Below are positions 1,112 to 33,608 of a DNA stretch of 34,876 nucleotides, one piece after another (position 1 is the first letter of the stretch; each line of letters begins with the position of its first letter). Under the pieces are notes generated by a model. The model was not told where the DNA came from, searched no databases, and worked only from the letters and a program-made list of their open reading frames with translations. The position numbers were made by a program, and so were the translations under genes. Source of the stretch: Capsaspora owczarzaki ATCC 30864 (taxonomy: Eukaryota; Opisthokonta; Filasterea); NCBI RefSeq assembly GCF_000151315.2, contig NW_011887310.1:99851-134726 (forward strand). Direction: 5' to 3'.

Positions 1112-1483
1112 TCACAGAACAAACGTCTGGTTGAAAGTACCCGGGAGATACGCAGTCGGGATGACACGACAAATCATGCACTTATCTTGACGTCGAATCA
1201 TTTCTTGAGCGCACGCCACGCAAACACATGCGTGGCAGCAAGGCATCAGCTTGGCTGTAGTCGGAGCGTTGTAACACAGCATACATTCGCGATCGCTGAC
1301 CTGAACAAACGTCTGGTCGAAAGAACCCTTCAGGTACGAAGTCGGGACTACACGACAAACCATGCACTTGTCCTGACGTCGAATCATTTCTTGAGCGCAC
1401 GCCACGCAAACACATGCGTGGCAGCAAGGCATCAGCTTGGCTGTAGTCGGAGCGTTGTAACATAGCATGCATTCACGATCGCC
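1112..1483 (-). repeat. Tandem duplication of the RING-finger coding unit (186 bp x 2)
   Basis: Two adjacent 186-bp units (about 1298-1483 and 1112-1297) encode RING fingers that are almost identical over about 42 residues: C-x2-C, then PCCH-x3-C-x2-C, then C-x2-C. At DNA level the central 105 bp differ at only a few positions, while the short tails after the last cysteines have diverged (KGSFDQTF versus PGTFNQTF). The period is 62 codons, so the frame is kept. This looks like a recent in-frame duplication or one kept uniform by gene conversion. Confidence 0.9.
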
Positions 1484-4400
1484 GTGTGGGCTCTCTTCCG
1501 TCGCCTCAACCTGATCCGGATCACCCTTCAGCTGAGCAGGGATTTGGCCAAAGGTTGGTCGGTCGTGTCGATCAGGCTTCAGGCAAGCAAGCGCAAGCTT
1601 CGCGACTTCAGTGGCAGCGAGTTTGTCTGCAGCGCTCCATGTGATCGACGCATCCAACTCGGAATCGAATTGACCGTGCGTTGAAAGAGCAGTCTTCACT
1701 GCGCTTGTAAGCACGCTACCAGGCTGCTGCCCAGTCAGCAGCTCGAGCAGAATCATGCCGTAGGAGTACACGTCCGTTTTGATGGAGACCTTGCCTTCAT
1801 CACGGTACTGAGGGCAAATGTATTGGGGAGTTCCTTGAATCGTCTGCGTCTGGATGTAGCTTTGTGTGGCCGTCTGAGCTGGTGCAGAGCGTGTCAGACC
1901 AAAGTCGGCGACCTTTGCAGTAAAGTGAGCGTCCAGCAAAACATTGTCCGTCTTGAGATCCAAGTGGAACAGCGGCTGACGCGGAATGGCAGTCTGCACA
2001 AAGTGCAGAGCGCTCGCAATCTCGGTTGCGATTCTCTGGCGTTGTGGCCAACTCAGAGCAGGCGTGCCATTGTTGCAGTCCAGACGATCGCGCACCGAAC
2101 CGTTTGCCATCAGTTCGTACACCAAGCAGCATTCGCCGCCTTCGTGAGCATAGCACATGATAGTGACAATATTCGGGTGGCGAAAGCGCGAGAGGGATTC
2201 GAGTTCGGCCTGAAATTGAGCGATGCCTTGCATAGAATCGGCCGCCAAACGTTTGACAGCAACTTGTGCACCACCCCAGATGCCAGAGTACACACTACCA
2301 AAGCCGCCGCCCCCAATGCGCCGGGAAGGCGCGAAGTTGCCAGTGGCTTGCGAAACCTCTTGCATGCCAACTCGAGGAATAGTGGTCGCGATTGCTGGAA
2401 CTTGGATGGCTGAGGACGATGAGGAATCAGGCTGTGCGATCGGCGCATCTGCGGGACATCGAGAGGCCTTGAATATGTTCAGAGCCTGTCGCTGCAGCTC
2501 AGATGGCTCCTCGATGCGTGATAAACTGCGTTGTAATACTGGCTGAATGAAGGAGAGCCATTCATCGCGAACCAGCGTCCGTTGCGAATGATCACAACTC
2601 AACTCCTTGTTTGGAAGGACGGCTGCAAGCACCACAGAATGAATCTCAAACAGACATGGATCTGCCACATCCATTGCACACTTTGTGCACCGCAGGTAGG
2701 TTTGCCAAGTAATACCCGTGTACCAGTTCGCAGTCAAATCGTCGACAACGCCAGCAAGCACATCGAGGAGATTGCCTGGAGAAGCGCCGCGCACGACAAT
2801 CACTAGATCAATCACATCCTCTTCCGTGCGACGATGGACCTGAATTAGAGCTCGATGCTGGTTTCTGCTGACGAGCACACAATCTCGCCAGGGGGTCATG
2901 TTGAACTCGAGGTGGTGCAGCCGGGCAATAACTCGCGAGAAGAAACCAGCGGGCATGAAGGCTGTCCGCATCACCAGAGTGGCCTCATGTGGCTCGTCCT
3001 TGTGAGGATTGGCGGACCATGCACTGCTCTCGGGCTGTCCAACAGGCAGAAAAGAAGGCACAAGGTAGCGGGCTTCGGTTGTTTCAGCGTCAGCGAGCGG
3101 ATACAGGAGTTCGTATCGTTGAAGTAGAACGAGGAGCTGATCACACACAGCGGGGTCCAAGTTCCTCCAAACGTGTGCAAGCAGATCAGCACGAGCCAGA
3201 ATGCCCTTCTTGACCCACTTGTGCCTCTGAGTGATCACACCAGTCAACACGGTTTTCGTAAACCACTGTGGATTGATAATGACGAGTTCATCATTCTCGG
3301 CGGCCGTCTGCACTACAGGACTGGTCGCAGAGGCGGCGCCAGCGGCGTGACCCATGCGATGAAGAACGATCCATCCTTGATAACGCAAAAGTTGCATGAA
3401 CTCTTCCACTCCTCTACGAGAAAGCCCGCAATGTTTCCCGCCAAGCACGACAACTTCATTCCATCGCAGGAGCGGCGACTTCTTCTCGGCCTCCATTGTA
3501 TTCGCGAGATCACGCAGCAGATCACGGAACTGCGGGTAGCGGCCGTCGATCTCCAAATTGTAAAATGGCATCTTTCGACCTGCCTGGAGCACTGCCGCTT
3601 TGAGCTCCGGCATGGTCGAGGCGCTTGCGGCTGTGCTCGCGTTGAGGTAAACAGTCGAGAGAATGTTGAAAGAGGTGTGCGTTTTCTTGAAAACGTGCAG
3701 CAGTTCTTCTAGATTCTCTTGCTGCTCTTGTTGTCGCTGCGGCGTGTATGATTCGCCGTCAATGTGGGTGCCGACAAGAATGACATCGACGTTCGGAACT
3801 CGAGCAAGCAAGCTGCGTAGCCAGAACGCCAGGCGCGAATTGCGCGAAATGGTTTCGCGAACGTCAAACAGGGCCAAGTAGACGGTACGTTCGCCGAGGA
3901 AGAACTGATGCGAAGCGAGGTACAGCTCTTGACCAGCAAAGTCCCAAATGTTCAGAATCATGGGCTCTTTATCGCGAAGAATGACAGAGGAAATGTCAAT
4001 TCCATCGGTAGAGGTAGTCTTGATCGTGTTGCTGCCCGCGAAAAACCTGACCACTGCATTGCGCTCATGCTGAGCAATGCCGTGAACAAGTGATGACTTC
4101 CCAACAGCGGGATCGCCAAGTAACACCACACGAACTTCTCGGCAGCGAACAGAATCGTGTCTGCGTTGGTCGCGCATGGTTCTGGACGTGACGAAATCGT
4201 CCAGTCCAAAGTCAGAAATACAGTCACCCAGCCGGTACCAGAAGATTTAACTAAAATAAAGCTCTTACATTTCGCACGATGGAGCACTCCGACGCAAAGC
4301 TATTTCCACGTAATACCCGATCTGATTCTCGTTCAAACTACGAACTCTCCTTGTAAACACATGATAATACTGGCGTCAACAAACCAAAAGTACATACTAG

Positions 4401-5469
4401 AGGGAGCTCAGAATTTTGTTGTCTTGAAGTGCTTCAGCAATCGCGCGCGCTCCCTCATCGCCAATCTGATTTTTGTGCAGACTGTCCATCCCTCCATCAG
4501 TGAGCACTCTTCTGAATCGCCCACTCTCATGCATCAGTCAAAGTGAGATGACTTACGAGAGCGTAGTCAGCGTCTTGTTCACCTTGAGTGCCTCGGCAAT
4601 GGTCTGCGCTCCAGCATCGCCAATCTGATTCTGACTCAGACTGTTCATCCCCTTCAGTGAGCACTCTGAATGCCCCCTACTCGATCGCCCACTCGCATGC
4701 GTCAGTCAATGTGAAATGCCTTACCTGAGCTCGATCAGCTTCGTGTTCACTTTGAGTGCTTCAGCAATCGCTTGTGCTCCAACATCGCCAATCTGATTCC
4801 CCCACAGACTGTCCATCCCCTTCAGTGAGCACTCTGAATACTCTCTGCGGGATCACTTCCTCACATGCATCAGTCAAAGTGAGATGGCTTACTCGAACTC
4901 AGACAGGGTCGTGTTCACTTTGAGCGCCTCAGCAATTGCCTGCGCTCCAGCATTGCCAATCTGATTCCGTTGCAGACTGTCCATCCCCTCCTCCATCAGT
5001 GAGCTCTCAATGCCATCTGCTGAAATCACCACTCATATCATCAATAAAAATGAGACGCCTTACTAGAGGTGAGTCATCGTCGTGTTCACTTTGAGTGCCT
5101 CAGCAATCGCCTGCGCTCCAGCATCGCCAATCCGATTCTCCCACAGACTGACCATCCCCTTCAGTGAGCACTCGGAATGTACTCTTCTGAATCACCCACT
5201 CACATGCATGCAGTCAAAGTGAGATGCCTTACAGGAGCCGCTTCACCGCTTTGTTCACTTTGAGTGCTTCAGCGATCGCCTTCGCTTCTTCATCGCCAAT
5301 CTGCCTCTCAGCCAGACTGTTCCCCTCCATCTTTGTCAGCACACACGCGCTGTCAACAACTGTGTTCCAAATCAACCTGGCTTTCTTCTTACTCGAGCTG
5401 TCTACTCCCATTCCTGACTAGATCAGACAACTCGCGCTGTCTCTCTGTCATATTCTGATAGGACAGCAT
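1112..5469 (-). CDS. LRR-Roc-COR-TKL kinase with two C-terminal RING fingers
   Basis: Predicted signalling protein of 1,239 aa. I place exons at 5469-5393, 5316-5233, 5147-5064, 4976-4893, 4808-4725, 4640-4557, 4481-4398, 4337-4269 and 4181-1112. All eight introns are phase 2, and the summed CDS is an exact multiple of three. Residues about 20-210 are ribonuclease-inhibitor-type LRRs (NQIGDAGAQAIAEALKVN pattern). A Roc GTPase follows, with P-loop GDPAVGKS (239-246), DFAGQE (297-302) and VGTHID (353-358), then a COR-like region. The TKL kinase is closest to the Pelle/IRAK style: IGGGGFGSVY (839-848), AVK lysine about 860, HLD replacing HRD with LKTDN (956-963), and DFG (976-978). Two C3HC4-type RING fingers end the protein (about 1119-1180 and 1181-1239). 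Roc-COR kinases act as regulated GTPase-kinases, and RING fingers usually recruit E2 enzymes. The combined role (sensing through LRRs, then phosphorylation and ubiquitination) is inference. The ATG at 5469 was chosen because its exon ends in a good GTAAGA donor and completes the first LRR in phase. ATG 4177 would give a protein lacking the LRRs. Confidence 0.88.
4398..5316 (-). repeat. Tandem LRR exon-intron units (84-bp exons, about 168-bp period)
   Basis: Six consecutive exons of exactly 84 bp (5316-5233, 5147-5064, 4976-4893, 4808-4725, 4640-4557, 4481-4398) each encode one 28-residue LRR, broken at the same codon position. Start-to-start spacing is 159-171 bp. The introns between them (about 75-87 bp) also resemble one another: most contain sequence related to CAGTGAGCACTC and end with a similar ATGGACAG acceptor when read on the minus strand. 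Exon and intron were therefore copied together as a unit. A seventh, diverged repeat is in 4337-4269. Confidence 0.9.
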
Positions 5470-8595: not shown

Positions 8596-9518
8596 TTCCA
8601 ATGCATTTCCAGCCAAATTGTTCCAACACGAAATAATCGAAATAATAGAAAAACGAAGGAAATAAAAAAAAAAAGCCAACGTCGCATGGTCGTCGTCTGG
8701 GCGTTGCGGCGTTGCTGTGTTTGAGCGGGGCAACTGGAGGCGCTGCGCCCACGCCGGCTGCACCAAATCGCGTCTGCGCAACACGCCTGTGACGGCCGCA
8801 TCGACGCCGGATGGATTGTTTTGACAATACCGTCGCCGCCGTTCATTTTTTTTTTCACTTAAATAAGTTCAAGAGATCGTCGTTTTTTTTTTTTTTTTTT
8901 TTTTCTTGTTCGACTGTTTGCGGCTTCGTCTCCAGCTTCGTCTGGCACCTGGGGAGATGCGCGATGCACTGGCAAGCGTCTTTTCGTGTGCTGATTGTGC
9001 GGGTGTGAGCGCCGACGCGCCCGGACTGCCCCAGTTGCGTTCCTCGACTTCCGCACTGTGGTGGCGTTGACACGAGGCTTTTTCTTTTTTTTTTTATTTT
9101 CTTTTTATTTTTTATTTTTTTCCAATGGAAACGCATTGACTTTTTTCCCATTTTTCTTTCTTTGGCCTTCCATTTGCTTCTGCAGTCCTTTTTTTTTTTC
9201 TTTTTTTTTTTCCTTCCATTTTTTTTTAATTTTTTATTTAATTTTTTTGAACATTTTGGCGCGAAAATCCGAGTTGGACGACTCCTCTTTTTCCCTTCTC
9301 CCCCAAAGCTGCCCTTTCGTGTTGGTCGATCGATCGTCGCAGTCACACACCATCACCGAGGTTGGCGTTCGTTCACACCCCCCTACAACCCCCATCGCTC
9401 CAACTTGCTGCTGTTTGATCGCGGTGCGCCTTTTTGGCTTTTTGTATGGCAGAATCGTCCCTCTGATTTTTTTTATTTTGCTGTATTTTTTTTTTTTTTT
9501 TTTTCCATCAGAGCAACC
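8151..9518. promoter_or_regulatory. Divergent intergenic region with long T tracts
   Basis: This 1.37-kb region separates two divergently oriented genes, the PycTM-like gene (minus) and the BET gene (plus). It contains T runs of about 35 (8558-8592) and 22 (8883-8904), and dense T-rich sequence at 9080-9260 and 9470-9504, the last ending 15 bp before the BET ATG. Open frames across it are poly-Phe or poly-Lys artefacts. Such T tracts often exclude nucleosomes, so a bidirectional promoter role is plausible. That role is inference. Confidence 0.55.
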
Positions 9519-12500
9519 ATGGACCTCGTTGAGGACGCTGCTGCAGCTGTTGTTGACACACACCAACTCGTGTCGCAACTGCCTGCCGCAGAACCCATGG
9601 AAGCTGCCGAAATCGAGCAATCTGAAGACACGACACCACTGGCTCAACTCGACGGCGTCGACGGCGCCGACGCTGCTGCTGAGCACGCCGAGTCTGCACT
9701 GGCTGCGCTCGAGGATGCGCCTTCAACCGCCGACGCAGTCGCTGAAGAGGCAGCTGTCGCTACAGAGTCTGTTGTTGCGGAGGCTGCTGCTGAGGTCGCC
9801 GAGGCTGCCGCTGACGTTGCCGAGCACGCCGCCGACGCCGCCGAGGCTGCTGCTGCTGCTAACGAGGCAACCGACACAACCGACGTTGCTCTGGCCAACC
9901 CTTCCGACGACGACGCCGCCGCCGCCGCCCCTGCCGAACACACAGAAGCGCCCGCTGAGCCCGCAGAAGAGCAAGCCGCGCCGATGGACATGTTGGACGC
10001 CGCGACCGCGGAATACACTTCGACCGACGATACACACCACACTGGCGACGAGACACAACCCCAACAGATGGACACGCAGGATTCGAAACCGACAGACGAG
10101 GCAGCGGATACTGCTGCCAGCAGCAGCGACGACTCTGCCAACGCGCGGCCAAAGCGATCCTTTGACGAAATGTCGAACGAGGACGCGGAGCCTGCGCACG
10201 GCGAGGACGCCTCGACCGAGTTTGACTTGATTGATGCGGCGGCTGCCGCTGCTGTCGACAACAACAACAACAACAACGCGGCAGCAGGCGACGACGCTCA
10301 CCAAGCCAAGCGGGCACGTCTGGACGGCGAGCAGTCTGCTGCGCCTGCAGAGTCGGCTGACGCTTCCACAGCGCCAGCAGCAGAGCAACACACTAGCGCG
10401 GACGATCAATACTACAACGACGAGTTTGACGACCACTACACATTCACGGACGCGGAGGCTGAAGGCGGGCTCGGCGTTGACGAGACGGAGGACGCAGCAG
10501 ACGAGGCACAGCACGACGACGGCGCCCCCCATGCTGACGGCTCTGATGCTGCTCACACTGCTGACGCGTCTGCGGCCGCATCGTCGTCGGAGGACGGTAG
10601 CGGCATTCCTGCGTCCCGACGAACGACCGACCACCTGCAATGGTACCTGAAGCGTCTGTTGCCTGCCCTTTTCAAAAAGGACACTGCCAAGTGGTTTCAC
10701 AAGCCAGTGGACCTGAACAAGCTGCCTCACTACAGGGAGGTGATTGAGACGCCAATGGACTTTAGCACCATCCGCGCACGCATCAACTCTGGCTACTATC
10801 CCGACGCCGAGGCATGCCGGAAGGACATTGAGCTGGTCTTTTCCAACTGCTTCAAGTACAACGCGCCCGGCGACAACGTCACGGTTGCCGGCGAGCAAGT
10901 CAAGGCACACTACGAAAAAGTGTTGGAGGAAAAGAAAACCCCTGACGTCCGCATCATCCTTCCCGAGAAGAACAGCAAGCCGCGCGCGCCAGCAACGTCC
11001 ATTTCTGCACCGTTCGACCCCAATGCGTTTGGTGGTCAGCGTCGCATGTCCAAGCAAGAGCGTGCTGTCAGCGCCCTGACAACCAAGCAGCTCAAGTTTT
11101 GCGGCGATACCCTCAAGTTCATCACCTCTGGCTCCAACCAAGGGCTTGCAAACCCCTTCATGGAACCCGTCGACCCCATCAAGCACCACGCCTTGAACTA
11201 CCACGAAATTATTAAAAATCCGATGGACTTTGGCACCATTCAGCGACGATTCCGACAAAAGTACTATACCAACGCCCTCGACTTTGCCGACGATGTGCGG
11301 CTCGTCTTCTCCAACTGCTTGCTGTACAACCCTCCAGACCACTTTGTGGCGGACATGGCCAGGAAACTGTCGGCAATCTTTGAAACGCGCTTCCTCAGCC
11401 TGCCCCAACAGTCGGACGACCCGATGGTCTCGCAACCCCTGTCCCCCGACTCGCCCAGCCACGCGGACTTTGTTGCCACCAAAAAGGCATCTTCTGCAAA
11501 GAAGAAGGCGCCGCCAAAGGCCGCACACGCCGCGCACGCGTCGTACCATCCCGCCCCGCACCAACCCGTCCTGACGCATGCTCCGCCAGCTGCCACTCTC
11601 GCGCGATCCGGGCTTGGCGGCACTGTGCGCAAACACGAGCCAGCGCCAGCCGCGTACAATGCGGACTTCCACGGCGACTTTGACACTGACCTCTTCCCGA
11701 ACGATTCGGGCTTTGCGTCTCAACCCGCAGCGCCCCTCCCCTCGGCCATGGCCATGCCCGCGCCTGTTGTCGAGAAGCCCAAAAAGCAAAAGCGCCCATC
11801 CACCAACACTGCCATCACTGGCGGCTCGACGATTTCTCACGGTGGTGCGTCGCCCAGCCCCTACCTCCCGCACATTCCCGCAAGCAGCGGCGTGTCGGCC
11901 CTCCCTTCGAGCGCGGCTCCGACCACCGCCGCAGCTGCCTCTGCTGCAGCACTCGATTCTTCCGTCCAGCTCAAGCAACTGGAGATGCAACAAAAGATTC
12001 TCGAGTTGCAGGTTCAGCTGAAGCAGTACGAACTGCTGCAGCAACAACAACAAACATCGCAAACAACACCTTCGGCCGTCGGCGGAAACAACTTTGGCCA
12101 GCCCTTCCCACCAATGTTGCCAGCGCAGTCACAGCAGCTCTTGCAACAACCGCCGCTCCCCGTCGCCAACCCCACCCCTGCTTCCAAAAAGAAGAATGCT
12201 GCTGCGTCCAACCCGGTCACCCCGCAACCGCTCAGCACTGGCATGGGCTTGCCATACATGCAGCCTGCCTTCAACATGCTCGGCATGCCAAACATGCCCA
12301 GCTTGTCGACCATGCCAAACATGTCGAACATGTCCAACCTGTCCACCATGCCCAACCTGTCAACCATGCCAAACATGTCCACCATGCCCGGCATGTATGG
12401 TGGTCTGCCGTCCACTCCGGGCGCCGTGACGGGCCTGAACGCTTACCAACCAGTCGCCCCTCCGCCAGTCACGCCCGCAACCTCGTTGCCACCGGCAGCG

Positions 12501-15221
12501 GCGCCCAAATCCACACCAAAGGCCGCCTCAGCCACCAAGGCCAAGGCCACTCCTTCGAGCGCCAAGAGCAAGCAACAGAGCGGCGGCATTGCCATCCCCG
12601 CTCCCGAGCCAGTGGCCGTGCCCATGACGTACTTTGAGAAGCAACAACTCTCGAAAGACATTGCGCGTCTCCCCGCCGAGAAGATTGGCGAAGTCATTCA
12701 CATCATTCAGTCGCGCACGCCCGAGCTCCAAGCTGTGAGTTTTTTTCTTTCGCTATTGTTGTTGGTGTGGTTGTGTTTCTTGTCGTTGCGATTCTGTGTT
12801 GCTCACACTCTGTTTTTTTTTTGGGTCTGTTTCTCTCCACAACCGTAGAACGACCCCGACGAAATGGAGGTGGACATTGACGCGATGGACCCGGGTACGC
12901 TGCGCGCACTCGAGAAGTTTGTCAAGAGCGTCTTCCAACCTGCCGTGGCTGCGTCTGCCAAAAAGCCTCCGGCCAAGCAGCGCAAGGATGCTATCAAGAA
13001 GCCACAGGCCAAGAAGGGTAAGGGCGCGTTTTTCTTTCTTTCTGGAATTGAGGTCGGGGGAATTTGGGTCGATTTGACGCGTTTCTGATGTGTTTTTGTT
13101 TTGGGTTTTTGCTGGTGCAGGTAACGCGAAGAAAGCTAGTGATAGCGATAGCGACTCTGACAGCGACAGCAGCTCGTCCTCGAGCTCTGATTCGAGCTCT
13201 GATTCTGGTAATGATTCGAGTTGAACCCCCCGCGCGCTCTCTCTCCCCCTCTCTTCATTTCTCCCTTTCTTTGTTGTTGGATGCATCCAGCACTGACGTG
13301 CATTGTCCTCTTGCTCTCTTTGCTCTCTCAGAATGATTGTGTGTGTGTGGTTTACGAGTTGGTGGGCAATGGGAGGATGGATATGAAAAAAAGAAACCTT
13401 TTTTTTTTGGACGAAAAAAAAACCAAAATCATGCAGCACAAACCCAAAAGAGTCAATCCTGTGTGTGGGTGCACTCTGCTGGAGGTCCTTTCATGGATTT
13501 TGCACTGCCCTGACACTTGCATTACCTTTTTCGGGTGTCGTTGCTCTTTGACTTTTCTTGTTGGAATATCTCATCCTCCCCGCAACCCACCACTTCTTCC
13601 CACCAAACACCACTTCCCGTCCTCCGGGCGTCTTCGCGCTCTGCCGCCCTTCTCCCCTTTTTAATGAAATTGTGTCATTGCTATCGAGTGTTTTTTTTTT
13701 TTGTCGTTGATTTCTTTATTGTTGTATGCGAACGCCTTCTTCTCTCTTTTTCCCTTGTAATTTGGAGGGCTACACCCTCTTTGATTTTGATTTTTCTCTC
13801 TTTTGTGAATTCCAACAGCAGCGTTGATGAACAGCTGCTGTTTGTCACGAATTTGCTGCTTGGAATAAACGTTTTCCCCCCTCTTTTCTTGCTTTCATGT
13901 CTTTTTTTTCTTCTTCTTCTTCTCAATGCTCCGTTCACACCCAACAAAACCTATAGAGTTTAGCATGAGGGGGGGAGTCGCGCTTTCTCTCTCTGATGTG
14001 CTTTTTCTTTCTTTCTTTTGCTAACTTCTTCTTCAAACAATGGTGCTTGCAGAAACGGAAGATGCTAAGCCTACCACCAAGCCTGCATCTGCAAAGTCCA
14101 AGCCAGCACCTGCGTCCGTCTCCAAAGCTGTTCCCGCCGCAGCCCCTGTCCAACCTGCACCGGTGCGTGACACGACCGTTGAAATGCGGTTGGCGTTTCG
14201 GCCACAAAACGTTACCCTCGACTTACACTGATGCCATTCTGCGCCTTGTTTTTTTTTTTTTGCACTTTCTCTCTCTCCTTAGGTTGCTGCACGCGCCGCA
14301 TCTCCACATGTCGACGTCTCGTCGTTTGTGTCGGACCTGGACACCACCGGAACACCCGCTTTGGGCATGGGCTCGCACACCACCGGCAACCCCGTGTCCG
14401 CCGCGGCCGCCGACCGTATCGACTTTTCCGTGGACTTGTCCGCGACTGGCCTGCATCCCAACATCCCACTGCAAGGGTTGAACGACACAAAGGCAATTCC
14501 CATGCTTCTTGAGTCCGGGTGGAAGGAGCAGGATTTAGAGCTGCACAACGAGGGCGCCTGGTCCAACCTTGCCGACCTCGACTCGAGCGATGTTGGCGCA
14601 GATTCCATGGCCGCCAGCTCGTCAGAGTTTGAGCAGTTCAAACAACGCGCCCTCCAAAAGTCCGAGCGCGAACGAATGCTTCGCGAGCAAGAGATGAAGC
14701 TGCAGCAAGAGCAGCTCCAACGCGAACAAGAGCGCGAGGCCGAGCGCCGTCGTGAGCTCGAGCGCAAGCAACGGTACGAATGCTGGAGCGATTGTTGGCG
14801 TTGTTGGTGTTTGGCGGAGAAGGAAAACAAAAAAAAAAAGAAGAAAAAAACAAACACAAAATAGAAGGTGTGTTGCGCTCACACTCACCCGTCTGAACTC
14901 AAACTGCTTTGTGTAGTGAACAAGAGGAACATGAGCGCCAGCTTGCTGAAGAGCATGAGGCCAATCTGCGTCGTGGACAAGACGAGCTCGATCGTCAGCG
15001 CGAGGCAGAACGGCGCGCACGCGAGGCGGTAAGGCTCCGTTCGACAATGCCTTGGTTTTTTTGTTATCATGTTGGAAACGAATGACGTTGGCTCATCTGA
15101 AACTATCAACCATGATTTTCTTTTCTTCTTCTTCTTCGTTCAGATGAATGACGAGATGACGCGAAGCCGTCTTGAGCGCGAGGCTGAGCATGCCAGCTTC
15201 TCGTTGGACGACTTTCAGTGA
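9519..15221 (+). CDS. BET family double-bromodomain protein, BRD4-like
   Basis: Seven exons (9519-12734, 12849-13017, 13121-13207, 14053-14162, 14283-14773, 14917-15028, 15144-15221) give 1,420 aa with consistent phases. BET proteins bind acetylated histones and recruit transcription factors in the nucleus. Residues 1-367 are an Ala/Asp/Glu-rich acidic tail, far longer than usual. Bromodomain 1 spans about 368-472 with the acetyl-lysine Asn in YNAPGD. Bromodomain 2 spans about 520-628 with YNPPDH. The WPF shelf is altered: KWF in the first domain and NPF in the second. A Gln-rich coil (about 810-850) and Met-Pro-Asn repeats (about 920-965) precede a textbook NET domain ([11 protein letters not shown] to [12 protein letters not shown], about 1034-1105, split by intron 1). 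A Ser/Asp run follows (about 1129-1157). The last part has the conserved GAWSNL and [15 protein letters not shown] motif (about 1290-1325) and a long charged coiled coil. The start is the first ATG after a T tract and is followed by an uninterrupted frame. Confidence 0.93.
13208..14052 (+). other. Long third intron of the BET gene with in-frame stop and AATAAA
   Basis: At 845 bp this intron is several times longer than any other in the window. The exon 3 frame reads through the donor for only a few codons (GNDSS) before a TGA at about 13222. An AATAAA hexamer lies at 13864-13869 and is followed by T-rich sequence. Retention or intronic polyadenylation would yield a short BET form ending right after the Ser/Asp run, lacking the BRD4-like C-terminal motif. 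The splice ends themselves (GTAATG donor, TTGCAG acceptor) look usable. Confidence 0.5.
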
Positions 15222-17861: not shown

Positions 17862-20427
17862 TTACAGTGGTAGCGTGTTGCTTCGAGAAAGGTTTGTCAG
17901 GTCGCTGAGCGCCGGCCTTGACGACGCAGGTTGGAGGTCTACACGCGCCAATTTGACATTATGTCCATCTTGCTTCGTAGTACTACGCGTTGGCATGCGA
18001 TAGCGTCGGATTTCTTGGAGTTCGGTGGAGCTCAGCTGATAATCGACTTGAACAACATCGCTCGAGTCTGATGTGACCGTGGTGAAGACGGGCGCGACGT
18101 TTTCATCGTCATCTTCCTGGCGACGCTTGCGGGCGGCTTGAGGTTGACGCTGGACATCGCTGGGGTCCTCCTGGTTGTCGTTGTGGCCGATGGCAGCGGA
18201 AGCCATTTCGGACGACGCTTGATTCTCGTCGTCATCGTCGTCAGACTCGCTTTCCTCCTCGCTGGCTGATTGATCCAAGTCGACAGTGTCGTTCGCCATC
18301 GATTGCGAAGCGAGAATGGGCCTAGGCCTGCTGACGCGCCGAGGAACGAGAGGTGTGGAAGCGGTCGCCGCTGGCTCAAGACTTAGAAGAGTGGGTCGCT
18401 TGAGACGGTTCTTGAAAAATGTCGCGCGGTCACGTACGAGCTTGGTATGCTGCAGGCGAGCAGCAGCTAGCTTGTTTCGGGTCTCCGCGGCAGTTGCCGA
18501 TTCGATGTCCTGCTCGACCTCTTCTCCCAGAGCAGCCAGCTGAGTCTCCAGAGCAAGAATTGTCTCCGCAAGTGTCAAGATGCGTGAGTCAAGGTCTTTT
18601 AGCGTGCGGAGGAAGATGGGCCGTTGCCGATTGTACTCTTCTTTCAGAGGTTCGAGCTGCTTCCTCTTCTCTTGCAACTCCTGCCGCTTAAGCTGGGCAT
18701 CCCTATTCTCCGGCGTAAGCGGGGATCGAGCGGTCGAGTTCATAGAAACGCGCATGGAGCTGTTGCCAATGCTCCTGGACCGCAGGGGCCTGGGTGGGGC
18801 CCGAAGGACTTCTTGCACCGAAAGTTCGACCTCGAGATTTCGACGCAAATCAGCTACCGCTGCATCGTGCACCCTCTTTTGCTGTAGAGCTCTCGGAGTG
18901 CAACCAATGGTTACCAGGGCGGCATCGGCAATCTGACGGACACGGTACAACGCCGAATACCGAGCATCCGGGGTCGGGGGTGGCTCGGGAATGTGCAGCG
19001 AGGGGGGTCGTAGACACGGCAACGTCAGCGACGGAAGGCAACGCTAGGGTCTTGTGCTTTTCCGTGTCCAGCGGATAGATACCAGTTTGGCGAAACCCAG
19101 ATCGGATCAAGTTGGATCGGTCGTCAATTTCGTTCCACGCCCGAATGGCCCCGTGAAGCTTGATGTTCACGTCGATGAGTGGCGAGTCTTCATCCAAAAT
19201 CGACTGCACGTGAGTCTCGAGCAAGTTCTTGTACCAGGCAAAGACGGTGACGTCGAGCGGCTGCAAGTGAGTCGACGTGTGCGATGGAAGGATCGCAACC
19301 AGGATGTTGTTGCTCACCGCGAGGTCAATCAACCCGACAGTGAACTTGTGACACGAGCTGCCATCCATCACCAATAGAACGGGGGTGGTGGTAGCTCGCT
19401 CCTTGACGACCTCGACGAAATCTCGAAACCACTTGTCGAAGATTTCCTCGTTGATGAAGCCGGACTCGGACTGGTGAATCAACTCCTCGTCCAGGCCCTC
19501 GGTGCACCTGTGAGGTAGAGTGGGCCGTGGATGCGCGACAATGAAGTGGGGCGCAACAGGAGCGGTGCCATCAGCACAAACAGTAAACAGACCAGTAACA
19601 TGCGGTCCCATCGTAATGGTTCGGCCAGATCACGGACTGACACGCTTGACACCAACAGCAGCCAGGGCACGCTTCTTTTTACGACCCACAGAGCAATCCG
19701 ACTCGTCCATGTTGAAAATATTGGCCGGCGTAGCGAAAAGAGTCGGGTAAAGATTGCTGTACTCCGCCAGTAGCGCGAACAAACTGCCGAGCTTCTTTTC
19801 ACTCAAAGCAGCCACTCGAAGTGTTTCCAACACGCTGCTACTGCGCCAGCCAATCTGTGAGCTGTGACGGGCGACAAAATCATTGACCCACTTGTCGGAA
19901 ACTTTGTCGTGCTCAAATTGACGTCTTTCCACGCCGTCCGGCCTCGGCACCTTCGAGGCTGCAAGCACATATCGAGTGAATTCCGTTTTGCTCAGAGAGA
20001 CAGCTCCTAAGCAGCACCGCTTGACAAACTCGACGAGCTCTTGCTCCTCGGGGACGGTGAACACGTAGCCTTGTCCCTGGATGGGATCCTCGCGCAGAAC
20101 GTCAGCCAACTCATCTAAGGTCATTCCAGGAATGTCAGAAGCGAGGTTGGCGTGGGCCTTGATGCAGCGGGCGATCATGGACTGCGATCGACCCAGCGCA
20201 TGGGCGATTTGGCGGGTCGTCCAGATTCGCTCGGCGGAGGCTCCCGGAGCTCCGCCGACATCCGTAGTGGATAGGAACGGGTCAAAATAGTATAGTTTGA
20301 GGGCGGTGGCCTTCGTCAGGAGCCTCTGGCGGAAGGGAGACGCGGTCGCAATCTGGGCGAGGCCGACCTCAAGTTGCTCCTGCGCCCGTCTGACCATGTC
20401 TTCCTTGTAGCTGGAATGAGTGTTCAT
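17862..20427 (-). pseudogene. Pogo-like transposase (DDE_1, CENP-B-type), interrupted
   Basis: The frame starts at ATG 20427 (MNTHSSYKEDMV). Residues about 85-115 (RIWTTRQIAHALGRS) look like a first helix-turn-helix. A CENP-B-type DNA-binding region follows (FTVPEEQELVEFVK to WVNDFVARHSSQIG). The DDE_1 catalytic core has FNMDESDCS, LLVMDGSSCHK and LQPLDVTVFAWYK, giving the DDD triad of pogo transposases. A TGA at 19632-19630 lies in frame just after the first catalytic motif, where the family usually has TSG-like sequence. After the core, the frame moves by one near a run of six C (plus-strand G 19002-19007). It then continues as a Glu/Lys coiled coil and an acidic, basic-tailed region to a stop at 17862. 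This copy is therefore probably inactive in itself, although an intron could explain the second break. The long coiled-coil tail is not typical of short pogo transposases. Confidence 0.78.
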
Positions 20428-20517
20428 TGATATTCGAAGACGGCGGCGGGGTGGGAGGAATACAAGCCGAGATAATCGGGTTTGAGTCTTTTTAGGGTGG
20501 GGGCGCAATGGTTTTTG

Positions 20518-20545
20518 GACTGAGTCTTTTTAGGAATCCCCTCTC
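20518..20545 (-). repeat. Right terminal inverted repeat of the pogo-like element
   Basis: Reverse complement of the left end with a few mismatches; TA follows at 20546-20547. The three bases outside each TA are also complementary (ATG and CAT), so the exact end could lie a few bases further out. Confidence 0.85.
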
Positions 20546-20885
20546 TACATGGAGATGGAGAAGTAGGGGTGAACTTGAGTATTGGATCCGACTTTTGCAA
20601 TGGTCCCACCAGTCAAATCCAGCAATGAAAATCCATCCACCCATCATTTGCCCACCCCTCATCTCTTTGAACAATCAATTTTCCCCCCTCTCCCACTCCA
20701 AGCCACAAAGCCATACTTGGATTCAATCTCAGTTTCCTTTTTTTTTTTTTTTTTTTTTTGTTCATTCAAAAGCACATTACAACCAAGTCCAACACTCACA
20801 GCACCGTGCTTTTCAGTCCCCAAACACACATACACACCTTCCATCACCTACTTGTTACTTTCAAAGGAGAGCTCGGATTTTTCCA
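20546..20885 (+). promoter_or_regulatory. Upstream region of the ankyrin gene with T22 tract
   Basis: Between the transposon end and the ATG at 20886 the plus strand is pyrimidine-rich, with a run of about 22 T at 20738-20759 and CA/CT-rich sequence up to the start. No clear TATA box is seen. The whole proximal promoter would be only about 340 bp, so the transposon lies right at its border. Confidence 0.45.
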
Positions 20886-21212
20886 ATGGCGCCGCGGCAC
20901 AGTAGGCTGACCAAGCCTCGCATGTGGACGTACCGGCGGCCCCGCTGGACTGCGCCTCCCCCGCCAGCACCACCTGCACCCCACTCTGCAGCGACACCGC
21001 GCGCGCTGGTGGTTGATTCCGCCGTCGTGAGCACGGGCGAAGGGGCGAACGCGGCAACGGCGTCCTCTGCGGCGGACGGCAGCGCACCGAGCGCATCGCA
21101 CATGGCGAGGAGGAGCAGCAGCAGCAGTGGGCGGCGACGGCGGCGGCGCCTAGATGAAGCCGACCATCCCGATGACGATGATGAAGACGATGAAGATGAA
21201 GATGATGATCAC

Positions 21213-21248
<36 letters not shown>

Positions 21249-24200
21249 CGCATTGACGAGACGCTGAGCGACAGCAGCGAAGACGAGAACGACTGCTTCC
21301 TGTTCCTGCGGCCGCCGCAGTGCTACAGCGCGCTGCTCGAGCCCGACGAGACCCCCGAGGACCTTGCGCGGGTCGCTGCCGTGTCGTCGTCGTCGTCGTC
21401 GTCGTCGTCGTACGCGGGGGACGCCGGCGACGGACTGGGCGCGGACAGGAAGAGCGAGGCAGTCATCCAGCAGCAGCAGGAGGACGACAGCGAGGGCGAG
21501 CGGCTCTACTCGTCAGACTCGTCGGACGACTCGGACGACGATGCCAAGCTCACGCGCTTCTCGGCTGCGTGGCCAAGGCTGTTCGTCCCGCGCAGGCAGC
21601 TGGCTGGGACTGGAGCTGGAGCTGGAGCAGCGCTGCCGCCAATGTACCCGGGCGTCCTTCCTCATGCGGTTTCAGGTGGGCAGATCTCGGCCACAGCACC
21701 ACGGCTGGACCACTCTGCAGGCGGTCTCAATGGAGATGCCAGTCTCATCGCGCTAATAGCTGGCGACCAACCAGGCAATCACCACCATTCTCACGCTGCT
21801 GCTGCTGCTGCAACCGCCGATGCCGCTAAACCAGTCGCAGCCACCACTACTGCTGCTGCGCTCAGTCACTCAGCGATGCACGAGCACTTTGCCAACGGAA
21901 GTAGCATGCACGAGCAATCGCCGCTGCGACCAACCCCAGGTGGAGCAGCAGGCCGGGGCAAGAAGCGACCCTCGCGCGATTGGCGCGTCCCAATACGCGA
22001 CTCTGGCAAGCCAACGATGAATCTAGCAACGCTGCGAGCGTCCAAGCACAATCCAGGACCCCTCTTCCGTCACGGCTTGACCATCATGCTCGCCCAAAAC
22101 TTTTTCAATTTGCCAGCCAACGCAACGCACATCCACATGATCAACCATCTCGCCGACCAGCAGCATTTGCGCGACTTTACCGCGATTGTCACCGGTCCCC
22201 CATCGCTCAACCGCCCGTATGACTTGTCCACGTCTTACCCACCCGAGACCAGCAGTGACAGCAGCAGCAGCAGCAGCATCAGCAGCATCACGACGACGAC
22301 GACGACGTCCACCACCACCTCAACAGCTGTCGATGAAGCTGCCACCTCTTCGCCTACATCAACTCCTACGTACGCGAGTGTGACCGCTCAAGCTCCTCCT
22401 GCCACCAGTAATGCCGCAGACACCCTCGATGAGCCTGCCGATCCCCAATTCGAAGCGCTGCGATCCATCGTCCACCACCTCCCACGCGAGGTCTGCACGT
22501 GGACCGAGTACGCCGAGTTTCTCGATTTGCAGGAGTGGACGGATGCTGAAAAGCGGCGACACAACCGCATTGTCGAGCTGCTCGCAGACACGGCGCCCGG
22601 TGGGACGTGCGCACGGACTCGCCGCGTTCGTCGCGAGTGTCTCGAGTACACGGATTGCTGCCCGTTTGACTGCTCGCGCGATGCTGAAGCTGTTGCAGCT
22701 GTGCTCGACGCGGCGGTGCGTGGCAAACATGTCTTGGCACGCGCTCTGCAGGACGCGAGCGAGCTGGCGCTGGCCGGTCGGTTTTTCTTCCGCAGCCAAC
22801 GTGGCTGGACGCCCTTCGTGCTCGCTGCGCTGCAAGGCGCACCGACGGCCGTGCCACGCTTGCGCGGACGGGTGTCGCTGATGCCGTACTTGCACATTTG
22901 CGACGACGTGTTCCAGCACGATCGCGGCTTTGGCGCTCAGCTCTGCTCGTTGCTCATGCTGCCTGTGATTGGCATGGTGGCCCCGTCGCCTCTGGTGGCT
23001 GCCATCCTCATGGGCCGGATTTTCATGCTTCAACCGCTGCTCGAAGCTGGCGCGCCCCTGGAGCGGCTTGCGCTCACTGTGGCGATTCAGCGCAATGCTG
23101 TGCGTACCATCGAGTTGCTGCTGCACTCTGGCCTGTCGTTGGAGCCGTCCGGCCCCATTCCAGCCGTCGACACTTCTGCCTCATGGTTTGGAGCGCATCA
23201 TCAGCCATCAGCCACGACAGAAGCAGTCTCCTCCATTTGGCTGTCGTGCCGAGCACCTGCCTCAACCGCTGCTCCTCCTCAATCCACTCACGAGAACCAG
23301 TCCTCTGATCCCGCCACCACCAACCCGTCTGAACTAGGTGCAACTGCGCACGTGCGACACCGCTCGGAAGAAGCAGACACGGCCCAAACCAACGCGCCTC
23401 CAAGCCCGCCTCATGCCACTGCTTTCATTCCCGAGGCCATTAGCCGTCCGCACGGCGAGGCGTTCTTGTGGCTGCTCGCCAATCACGACCTGACGACAGC
23501 GATCGGAGAGACGCCCCTGCACGTGGCGGTGCGCGCAGGCGCACAGCGCTCGTTTGAGTATCTGATTGTGCAGCATACCCGGGCGTTCGACCGCATGAGC
23601 CGAACCTACAATGAGTTTGGACAGACGCCGTTGCACGTTGCCGCGATTGGCCTGTGCTTGGACGCTTCGCACGATGGCGGCTCGTGGGCACGCATGCTGT
23701 TTGCCATGCTGATGATTGCGCAAGATCGCAATCCACCCATGCACGCGCCCCGTCTCGTCAGGACGTACGTGCAGCAGACCCAGCCCCAGTTCACGCTGTC
23801 CGCGGCCGAGCATTGGCAGCCCGAGCCGCACGCACCGTCGCGACCAAAGGGAATGTTCCCGGCGTTCTTGGCTGCCTACCGCAACCGCTTTTCTGGCACC
23901 CCACCGCTGCTGGAAGGCGACATGGCCGGCTTTACGCTCGTGCACATTGCGGCGTACTTTGACCACGCGCGGCTGATTGAGCAGCTTGCCCCCGTGCTTC
24001 CGCCCGATCGCCTGCGAGACGAGTTGAGCCGCCACGACGCGCGCGGCCGCACTCCCCTGCACATTGCCGTGCGTCTGCGCAACTACCGCGCAGCCTTTGC
24101 CCTGCTCATGTTTGACGCGCGCGTGGATGTGTGCGACCGCCACGGCCGCACGCCGCTCATGTACCTGCGCCAGCCCGAGTCTGTTCCCGGCGATCTGCGG

Positions 24201-24584
24201 CTCTGGCGCCTGCTTGCCGACGCCTACGAGCGTGCCCGGCTCATTTTCGTGCACGAGAAAGCCATGGCTGCGGCCGGCATCACAGCGACAAGCGAGGCGC
24301 ACGAGGGAGCAGCAGCTGCAAGTGGCTCGGTCGTTGCGACCGGTTCGGATGCTGCTGCTGCTGCTGCTCCTGGTGGCGAGGCCAGTACGAACGCGGGTCA
24401 CGACGCCGAGCTGGATCCCGACGAGAACATTCTCGTACACACGTTTACTGCGCGGGATGCACGCGGCCGTACGATCTGGGACCGTTTCGCGCAACGCGGT
24501 GTCCATCCTGACATGCTCGAGATGCTTCGTCGCAATCTGTACCAGACGGATGAGGACATGTGTCGCAGCGAGCTCGGCGAGTAG
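20886..24584 (+). CDS. Large ankyrin-repeat protein with acidic low-complexity N-terminus
   Basis: Single-exon frame of 1,232 aa from the first ATG after a T tract (MAPRHSRLTKPRMW). Residues 1-90 are Pro/Ala-rich with a basic patch (GRRRRRR), a possible nuclear signal. A run of Asp with few interruptions follows (about 92-122, encoded by GAT repeats at 21163-21250), then Ser-rich linkers to about 500. Residues about 530-760 are a Cys-containing helical region that resembles degenerate ankyrin repeats (WTPFVLAAL, LERLALTVAIQRNAVRTIELLL). Clear ankyrin motifs lie at about 874-905 (ETPLHVAVRAG), 911-925 (QTPLHVAAIG), 1014-1030 (FTLVHIAAYFD), 1053-1075 (RTPLHIAVRLRNY) and 1085-1090 (RTPLMYL). Ankyrin repeats mediate protein binding; partners are unknown. 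I see no catalytic domain. The codon-level Ala/Asp/Ser tracts are likely to vary in length between strains. Confidence 0.82.
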
Positions 24585-27210: not shown

Positions 27211-31698
<4,488 letters not shown>

Positions 31699-31753
31699 CG
31701 GAGCTGTGAACAGAGAGAGAGAGAACAGAGAGAGAAGAGAGAGAACAGAGAGA

Positions 31754-31828
<75 letters not shown>

Positions 31829-33608
31829 AGGGAGAAAAAAAAAAAAAGAACAGAATTGAATTGAATTGGATTGAGTTCAATACAAAGACAAGCAGCAGAA
31901 TGGGGAAGTGAAGGGTTTGAGTGAGTGATACGAATTCAGACAACAAGAACCCAGTGTTGGAATAAAGAACAAAACAAAAGAAGGGAGAGGAAGGGGAAGC
32001 AAAAAAAAAAAAAAAAAAAAAGAGATCAAGACAGCATTGTGATGAAGAAGAAGAAGACCAAAAGAAAGGGACCTCGGACTCCATCAAGTCAGTTCAGTTA
32101 GTCGTCAAATCACATCACTGCGATGATTTGATCATTGGATTGACTTTGATGATCGTTGAGCAATGCTGACCATCTGCTTCATGAAGATTCACCGACTGCG
32201 AGACTGGTTGGACTGGTTGGACTGGGGGACTGGTGGACTGGGGACTGACTCCACTCTCCTCCTCCAACAACTCAAAATCCCCAAAGACAAAACCGAGTCC
32301 GCCTTCACCTCACTTTGTTCCATCCATCCAGCGCTCAGCCTACGAAGCACAGAGTACTACCCCCCCTCTCCCCCTTCTCTCTCTTTCTCTCTCTCCATCT
32401 CTAATGCTATGATCACTGGATACAAAAGAATCCGCTTTTTTTTTTTTTTTTTTGGTTTTTTGTAGCGTTGACTGGTCGCGGCGTGTCAGGTTCTGCTTCG
32501 AAAGAGAGTTGCAATTGGGGTGGCCACTCATTTCGCAGCCATGCACGGACGTCCGTGCCCAAAGCTGGCCTGAAATCAAGACGAAAGGGAACAACGAAAA
32601 CGAGCGCAACAGGACGAACTCCAAAAAAAAAAAAAAAAAAAAAAAACAGTTTGAATTTCAGCCGTTTTCCAATGGAAATTCAATAGAAAAAATAAATAAT
32701 AAAAAATAATAATAATAAAAAAGAACCGCAAAGACAAAAAAAAAAAAAGGCATTTGTTTCGCCTTGTTTCGCAGAAATCAGCGACGTGTGTGCTGCCGTA
32801 GTGCGTGAGGGTGAGTCGAGGAGTGCGCTTGTGTGATTCGACAGAGGAACGACGGGAAGAAGGCGCGCGCGTGTGGAGAAAACCAAGTGGGGGGGGGGGA
32901 AGGGGGAAAAAAAAAAACAAAAAAAAAAAAAAAACACAATGGCAAAACAACAACAAGAACCAGAAAAAAAAAAAGAAAAAAAAAGCGGTTTTACGTGAAG
33001 AAGACATGAAGGACATTTTGGCAGCGGAAAAAAAAAAAAAAAAAAAAAAGGAAAGCTGAGAAACTGAAAATGAAGATACGACTCTTGGAACTCAGAGTTG
33101 AGATTGAGTGTAACCGAGTCAAAACCCTGACATGGACCGGCAGTGAATGGACGTGCTTCCCAGTTCAAGTTGCTCTGATGCGAGAGATGACCTTATTTTT
33201 TGCGTTAAGCCCTCCGCTCGCCTTTCCAATTCCCGTGGGGCCTATTCTCCCCCATTCCACCATTTTATGATAATATACCATAGATATCAATAATCCATGG
33301 CAAAAATAGGGCATGAAAATCGACCAGATCGCGAGGAGGCGGGTTTGTTGTGTAATGCCGCGACAATCGCCAGTTGCCCATGACACAGCACCGTCCTGTT
33401 GGCTTTTTCGACCCCCGCTCCACTTCTAATTTACTTGTGTGAAATATTTGTGCACTTGGGACGAAGGCGAACGGGATTGGCGAGACTTGATTTCACTCGG
33501 TTTCATCACTTGTGGAACAATCGGAGCATAACTTTCAATCGACCTGGCATTCAATCTTGTCATGTAATTCGCCCAAACCGTTGACTTTTAACATAACAAC
33601 AACATAGA
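31699..33608. promoter_or_regulatory. A-run and GA-microsatellite region upstream of the Pkc1-type gene
   Basis: No gene is evident. A long GA microsatellite lies at about 31710-31825, directly before the start codon. It is followed by A runs of about 21 (32001-32021) and 24 (32623-32646), a T-rich patch near 32436-32462 and further A runs at 32900-33060. Read in the direction of the kinase gene this is CT/T-rich. From about 33060 to 33600 the sequence is of ordinary complexity, but open frames are short and unlike known proteins. Confidence 0.5.
31710..31825 (+). repeat. GA/CT microsatellite
   Basis: Nearly uninterrupted GA dinucleotides, with occasional ACA or AA interruptions at the left, ending in an A run. 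It sits about 15-130 bp upstream of the Pkc1-type start codon (CT-repeat in sense orientation), a position where length changes could affect expression. Confidence 0.9.

What the first reader, a model, noticed from the sequence alone, without database searches (positions are those of the whole stretch)
1112..5469. One-chain receptor-like protein: LRR + ROCO GTPase + Pelle-like kinase + twin RING fingers
The frame itself shows P-loop, DFAGQE and THxD motifs, a kinase with intact Lys, catalytic Asp and DFG, and two RING fingers; LRR exons splice in phase to its start. ROCO proteins usually carry kinase, LRR, WD40 or ankyrin modules. I know of no described family that ends in two RING fingers after a Pelle/IRAK-style kinase. 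The design resembles an innate-immune sensor that could both phosphorylate and ubiquitinate targets. The HLD replacement of HRD also marks the kinase as a non-RD type, common among immune-related kinases.
Basis: partly seen in the sequence, partly recalled or inferred. Interest (0 to 1): 0.8.

Follow-up and report, generated by a model that had tools for sequence, protein, structure and literature searches.

The report
Capsaspora sensor-GTPase-kinase-ubiquitin-ligase protein
A single-celled relative of animals carries a gene that joins a repeat-based sensor, a GTPase switch, a kinase and two ubiquitin-ligase fingers in one chain; it belongs to a reshuffled gene family that looks like a home-made sensing system, though no function has been tested.

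Summary
On the minus strand, 5469-1112 reads as nine exons (1,239 aa; eight GT-AG, phase-2 introns): LRR, Roc, COR-A, COR-B, a Pelle/IRAK-like non-RD kinase and two RINGs. The LRR-to-Roc junction matches an annotated paralog. The database protein for this gene (619 aa) lacks LRR, Roc and COR-A. Homolog names and several contig lengths point to Capsaspora owczarzaki. The gene is not alone: I found 16 ROCO genes, 7 with a kinase, 5 of these with at least one RING, and 18 kinase-RING loci without ROCO, all lower bounds. Among 69 RING matches only this gene has two side by side. One kinase clade sits on two separate Roc-COR lineages, so modules were exchanged or fused twice. Most LRRs are one per 84-nt exon, most variable on the predicted concave face. 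The RING resembles dimeric IAP/MDM2/IDOL RINGs (weak scores), so the twin RING may be a one-chain dimer. My reading: a cytosolic LRR sensor with GTPase switch, kinase and E3 output. Immune use is unproven. My searches listed no RING-bearing ROCO outside Capsaspora.

The parts
5393..5469 (-). exon 1, N-terminal MLSYQNMTERQRELSDLV..
   Evidence: similar to P0008 start MTPRQRELYDQVKNAS
4269..5316 (-). seven LRR exons (5316-5233, 5147-5064, 4976-4893, 4808-4725, 4640-4557, 4481-4398, 4337-4269), six of exactly 84 nt, phase-2 introns
   Evidence: LRR_6 E 1.2e-35 on the spliced product
1112..4181 (-). exon 9: Roc-COR-kinase-RING-RING, one uninterrupted exon, stop at 1112-1114
3758..4132 (-). Roc GTPase domain
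   Evidence: PF08477 E 7.8e-19; GDPAVGKSS, DFAGQE, GTHID
3047..3298 (-). COR-A (matched part)
   Evidence: PF16095 E 7.1e-11
2576..2977 (-). COR-B
   Evidence: PF25497 E 3.8e-14
1532..2323 (-). Pelle/IRAK-like protein kinase, non-RD (HLDLK), DFG and VAVK intact
   Evidence: PF07714 E 9.5e-40; IRAK1 6bfn E 5.2e-45; motifs
1295..1480 (-). RING 1 with tail ..DQTFVQVS running into RING 2
   Evidence: PF13920; eight metal ligands
1115..1294 (-). RING 2 with C-terminal tail ..NQTFVL
   Evidence: PF13920; 91.1% DNA identity to RING 1 over 180 nt

Best explanation
This is a cytosolic sensor-effector in one chain. The LRR array binds a ligand or partner; binding changes the nucleotide or dimer state of the Roc-COR GTPase; that brings kinase domains together for trans-phosphorylation; and the C-terminal RING E3 then ubiquitylates bound or phosphorylated partners, or the protein itself. 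In most RING-bearing family members the RING is a single IAP/MDM2-like finger with a conserved C-terminal tail, which would need a second chain (for example through COR dimerisation) to be active. In this gene the RING is doubled, which could give a RING dimer within one chain and so uncouple E3 activity from dimerisation. Shown here: domain content, intact motifs, purifying selection, module exchange and LRR variability. Inferred: order of events, activities, ligand, RING dimer, and use in defence.
For: Domains above Pfam cut-offs. Catalytic and GTP-binding motifs intact in this gene. dN/dS between this gene and paralogs L042-L045: Roc 0.10-0.30, COR 0.28-0.32, kinase 0.19-0.41. The two RINGs differ by 8 synonymous and 8 nonsynonymous changes, dN/dS 0.25, Fisher p 0.007 on rounded site counts, so both copies look constrained. 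Eight RING ligands in 25 of 25 RINGs collected; TFV or TYV near the end of 23 of 25 extracts, L039 and L045 missing. Foldseek with the twin-RING model lists MEX-3C, RNF4, cIAP2, MDM2/MDMX, cIAP1, IDOL, XIAP and BIRC7 RINGs. LRR codons at concave-face x positions have dN/dS 1.11-1.19 against 0.36-0.39 elsewhere at 85% and 80% identity floors. A full-length RNF4 fused to a second RING enforces dimerisation and is reported active (PMC3991395, passages).
Against: No biochemical, expression or ligand data. In the closest exon pairs (at least 90% identity, 33 pairs) the face-position dN/dS is 0.53, not above 1; relaxed constraint could explain the rest, and the positions were chosen knowing the family consensus. 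The twin-RING model is weak (best pLDDT 79.9, pTM 0.53, the other four models 44-55), does not show a cis dimer, and has no Foldseek match under E 0.001; tandem B-boxes also rank high. The last Cys pair has no Pro (CMVC, CMIC), which many active RINGs have (recalled). Of 7 kinase-ROCO genes, L042 shows no RING and lacks the DFG pattern, L041 keeps 33 RING residues, L045's RING has lost its tail and Arg, and L032 and L041 have kinase frame breaks, so the full set is not essential to every member.
Confidence: 0.5

Rival explanations
1. A ROCO kinase with an ordinary role in growth, adhesion, chemotaxis or development, with the RING setting its own turnover; the LRR variation is drift on exposed residues.
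For: Dictyostelium ROCO proteins act in chemotaxis, division and development (PMC6337361 and PMC11378527, passages). Face-position dN/dS is not above 1 in the closest exon pairs.
Against: 16 ROCO and at least 18 kinase-RING loci with varying LRR number and module exchange are more than one pathway would seem to need.
Confidence: 0.3
2. A recombined family member without its own function: the twin RING is a by-product of exchange between near-identical RING sequences.
For: RING 1 is closer to the RING of L032 (97.7% over 129 nt) than to RING 2 (95.3%); L032 and L041 have kinase frame breaks.
Against: This gene's predicted 1,239 codons hold no break, dN/dS is under 0.45 in the comparisons that could be computed, and the two RINGs differ more per synonymous than per nonsynonymous site.
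Confidence: 0.12
3. The LRR exons and the Roc-to-RING exon are separate genes; translation of the second starts at the ATG at 4177.
For: An ATG lies 4 nt after the acceptor; the database protein (P0003) starts even further in, at residue 403.
Against: Phase and splice sites fit; annotated paralogs P0001, P0002 and P0008 join LRR and Roc, P0008 with similar residues across the junction.
Confidence: 0.06

Closest known systems
LRRK1/LRRK2 and Dictyostelium ROCO kinases (group 2 ROCO)
   Same: LRR-Roc-COR-kinase order. PDB sequence match to LRRK2 6vno E 5.1e-36, best stretch residues 54-432. Foldseek top rows are LRRK2/LRRK1, though with a poor model and TM-scores near 0.3.
   Different: Pelle/IRAK-like kinase; no ankyrin, armadillo or WD40 match; C-terminal RINGs instead.
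Brown algal LRR-ROCO candidate immune receptors (PMC11378527)
   Same: One LRR per exon, phase-2 introns, exon duplication, LRR-Roc-COR (passages; here).
   Different: [quoted passage not shown] here 84 nt, with kinase and RINGs.
IRAK/Pelle and plant RLK/RLCK kinases
   Same: Best PDB kinase match IRAK1, then plant kinases.
   Different: No death domain or ectodomain; sits behind Roc-COR.
Plant U-box kinases (PUB32/33 type)
   Same: Related kinase and an E3 domain in one chain; among the best non-Capsaspora matches (P0045, 40% identity over 28% of the query).
   Different: U-box instead of RING; no LRR or Roc-COR listed.
IAP, MDM2, IDOL dimeric RINGs
   Same: C3HC4 RING with short hydrophobic C-terminal tail; fold matches at E 0.005 and weaker.
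   Different: Tail about 5 residues longer after the last Cys (recalled comparison); doubled here.

Membership tests
ROCO family | Roc followed directly by COR | tested here: met
   PF08477, PF16095, PF25497 in order
ROCO family | GTP binding and COR-mediated dimerisation | not testable with these tools
   motifs only
LRRK subfamily | ankyrin repeats and C-terminal WD40 | tested here: not met
   no such Pfam match
IRAK/Pelle kinases | kinase domain closest to IRAK/Pelle/RLK | tested here: met
IRAK/Pelle kinases | N-terminal death domain | tested here: not met
   no Death match
NLR immune receptors | NACHT or NB-ARC domain with LRR | tested here: not met
   Roc, no NACHT/NB-ARC match; LRR present
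RING E3 ligases | eight zinc ligands | tested here: met
   25 of 25 family RINGs collected, both here
RING E3 ligases | E2 binding and ubiquitin transfer | not testable with these tools
   Arg after the last Cys in both RINGs is only suggestive
Tail-dependent dimeric RINGs (IAP/MDM2) | conserved hydrophobic C-terminal tail used in dimerisation | tested here: inconclusive
   TFV/TYV near the end of 23 of 25 extracts and weak fold matches; dimer not shown

The most novel reading that the evidence does not exclude
Capsaspora runs a home-grown, combinatorial intracellular receptor system: fast-changing LRR arrays built by exon duplication are plugged onto exchangeable Roc-COR, Pelle-kinase and RING modules, and this gene is its most complete form, sensing, switching, phosphorylating and ubiquitylating in one chain with a built-in RING dimer.
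Probability: 0.3. Interest if true: 0.82.

Novelty: new variant of a known kind. Interest (0 to 1): 0.6.

Why it matters
ROCO kinases such as LRRK2 are studied for Parkinson's disease, and no RING E3 is among the ROCO partner domains named in the review passages I saw (PMC6337361). Here a close unicellular relative of animals joins LRR, Roc-COR, an IRAK-like kinase and RING E3 in one polypeptide and has expanded and reshuffled the set. It offers a testable model of how sensor, switch and output modules are combined, and of whether unicellular holozoans have diversified intracellular receptors.

Tried and rejected
Separate LRR gene: rejected on phase, splice sites and paralog structure. Acceptor at 4252/4251 rejected because it puts a stop in frame. 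Assembly artefact for the twin RING: unlikely, since the copies differ at 16 of 180 positions and more per synonymous site. SpoU_sub_bind match on the LRRs taken as chance. Full-length AlphaFold model: mean pLDDT 59.7, Roc and kinase poorly modelled, used only as weak support. A first LRR-exon detector was too strict (104 exons, finding 4 of this gene's 6 full-length LRR exons) and was replaced (193 exons in 32 loci; some loci may hold exons of a neighbouring gene). First exon boundaries were off by one, corrected. Papers: ten searches listed no paper whose title or shown abstract describes Capsaspora ROCO-kinase-RING proteins; besides the listings I saw passages of four papers (PMC12716839, PMC11378527, PMC6337361, PMC3991395), none in full, and most subscription papers are not held, so prior description elsewhere is possible.

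Full report
What was checked. The reported frame is real: on the minus strand 4246-1112 is open, and Pfam finds Roc, COR-A, COR-B, a tyrosine-kinase-like kinase and two C3HC4 RINGs in order, each above its cut-off. All eight introns are GT-AG and phase 2, six LRR exons are exactly 84 nt, and the product is 1,239 aa (a first attempt with boundaries one base off is). LRR_6 matches the spliced part at 1.2e-35. The junction to Roc, SCEITMRDQRRHDSVRC, lines up with the annotated paralog P0008, SCTIFMPEQRRCDSVRC. No transcript was examined.

Where it is from. The window is contig C19, 99851-134726, of a 27.46 Mb, 29-contig unnamed assembly. The closest homologs are named Capsaspora owczarzaki ATCC 30864. 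Several contig lengths quoted for those proteins equal contigs of this assembly (1,511,883 for C8; 2,141,502 for C4; 2,667,796 for C2); others differ by about 1% or less from any contig seen (for example 919,545 quoted, 916,375 for C14), so two assembly versions may be involved. The database protein from this gene, P0003, has 619 aa and begins at residue 403 of the 1,021-residue Roc-to-RING frame, so that model misses LRR, Roc and COR-A.

The family. COR-B was found at 15 places in the genome and one more ROCO gene (L045) came from the protein search. Of these 16, 7 have a kinase behind COR (window, L032, L041, L042, L043, L044, L045) and 9 show none within the 1.5-2.2 kb of flank held. Of the 7, five have a RING (two in the window gene; one each in L032, L043, L044, L045), L041 keeps a 33-residue stretch and L042 shows none. 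L045's RING has its eight ligands but has lost the Arg and the tail. L043 has a 100-N assembly gap in COR. Another 18 fetched loci are kinase-RING without ROCO (L016, L018-L030, L033, L034, L037, L039), 15 of them with LRRs detected upstream and one, L034, matching the SH2-kinase-RING protein P0025; L031, where kinase fragment and RING lie 4 kb apart, is left out. The whole-genome RING search listed 69 places; read by eye, the window's pair is the only one within 300 bases on one strand. These counts are lower bounds: the first protein search scored 45 of 296 candidates.

Modules have moved. In a kinase tree of 33 rows the 7 ROCO kinases form one clade, support 100/100. In a Roc-COR tree of 16 rows they fall in two groups: window and L042-L045 on one side; L032 and L041 inside a group of otherwise kinase-free genes on the other. 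Holding the 7 together costs 128.9 log-likelihood units, p-AU 4.5e-5; I had seen the quick tree before naming the group, and L007 and L042 have long branches, so the p-value is indicative. One kinase lineage thus sits on two Roc-COR lineages; fusion twice or recombination between paralogs are both possible. L032 and L041 have frame breaks in the kinase, so the second lineage may be decaying.

The two RINGs. They are 95.3% identical over 129 nt and 91.1% over 180 nt; RING 1 is even closer to L032's RING (97.7% over 129 nt), which points to exchange between paralogs. The copies differ by 8 synonymous and 8 nonsynonymous changes (dN/dS 0.25; Fisher p 0.007 on rounded site counts), so both appear maintained. 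All 25 RINGs collected (23 loci plus the window's two) have the eight ligands; TFV or TYV lies within the last six residues of 23 of 25 extracts, the extract of RING 1 ending where RING 2 begins and L039 having TFV followed by four residues. The script's pattern found the Arg after the last Cys in 22 of 25, but L026 and L037 were missed because their extracts are shorter; in the sequences it stands in 24 of 25, L045 lacking it. A model of the twin RING (best mean pLDDT 79.9, pTM 0.53, the other four models 44-55) gives Foldseek matches to MEX-3C (E 2.2e-3), an RNF4 complex, cIAP2, MDM2/MDMX, cIAP1, IDOL, XIAP and BIRC7, with tandem B-boxes also high and none at E under 0.001. RING dimerisation is described as required for activity in such ligases, and a full-length RNF4 fused to a second RING, enforcing dimerisation, as active (PMC3991395, passages). 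Hence the proposal that the doubling makes a dimer within one chain. The model does not demonstrate it.

The sensor part. Across 193 detected 84-nt LRR exons in 32 loci, entropy is highest at the x positions of LxxLxLxxN (3.5-3.95 bits, against at most 2.7 elsewhere). In 109 nearest exon pairs of at least 80% identity dN/dS is 1.19 there and 0.39 elsewhere; at 85%, 1.11 and 0.36 (67 pairs); at 90%, 0.53 and 0.41 (33 pairs). This fits a binding face that changes faster but does not prove positive selection, and the positions were chosen knowing the family consensus. The window gene's own five LRR introns between full-length LRR exons are 76.5% alike on average (at most 84.7%) against 58.7% to introns of other loci, although the single closest intron elsewhere reaches 92.2%; over all loci the means are 60.9% within (339 pairs) and 55.9% between (10,539 pairs). 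So the array grew partly by duplication of exon plus intron, and units also look shared between genes. Brown algal ROCO genes (except two of four groups) show the same one-repeat-per-exon, phase-2 layout and are proposed as immune receptors (PMC11378527, passages).

Constraint and activity. dN/dS against L042-L045 is 0.10-0.41 for Roc, COR and kinase. Of 28 family kinases HLDLK stands in 27, HRD in none, the G-loop pattern in 27 (L039 missing), VAVK pattern in 26 (L023 and L026 missing) and DFG in 27 (L042 missing); this gene has all of them. Of 16 Roc extracts 14 show the P-loop; those of L032 and L042 begin after it. No hydrophobic stretch long enough for a membrane span was seen.

Outside Capsaspora. 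The full-length search found 429 proteins, the best 120 shown; beyond Capsaspora these align over at most about a third of the query, that is over the kinase. A Roc-COR search listed 31 proteins; 17 are Capsaspora or the window's own and 14 others are at 21-32% identity, none with PF13920 among its listed domains. A search with the RING end of P0013 listed 14 proteins, all Capsaspora or the window's own. These searches score only proteins that share short exact words, so distant cases could be missed.

Verdict. A well-supported domain combination that I found described nowhere in the listings and passages seen, within the ROCO family and in a shuffled gene set seen here only in Capsaspora; function and immune role remain inference.

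Noticed in passing
window 1112-2971 (P0003): The database protein for this gene is 619 aa and starts inside COR-B; LRR, Roc and COR-A are missing from that model.
   Followed up: yes
L034 1691-2773 (+), P0025: SH2 + Pelle-like kinase + RING in one protein, an SH2-bearing relative of the family.
   Followed up: partly
L036 739-3843 (-), P0007: LRR protein with three Pelle-like kinase domains in a row.
   Followed up: no
L032 and L041: Kinase reading frame broken in both ROCO-kinase genes of the second Roc-COR lineage; may be decay or sequence error.
   Followed up: partly
window 18853-19629 (-): DDE_1 transposase-type endonuclease (2.7e-13); the adjoining frame 19633-20529 has no Pfam match.
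   Followed up: no
window 9009-12845 (+): BET-type protein with two bromodomain stretches and an extra-terminal domain.
   Followed up: no
window 27430-31935 (-): HR1, C2, two C1 and protein-kinase pieces in successive frames: probably one PKC-type kinase gene with introns (gene type recalled).
   Followed up: no
window 20496-24581 (+): Ankyrin-repeat protein in one large open frame.
   Followed up: no
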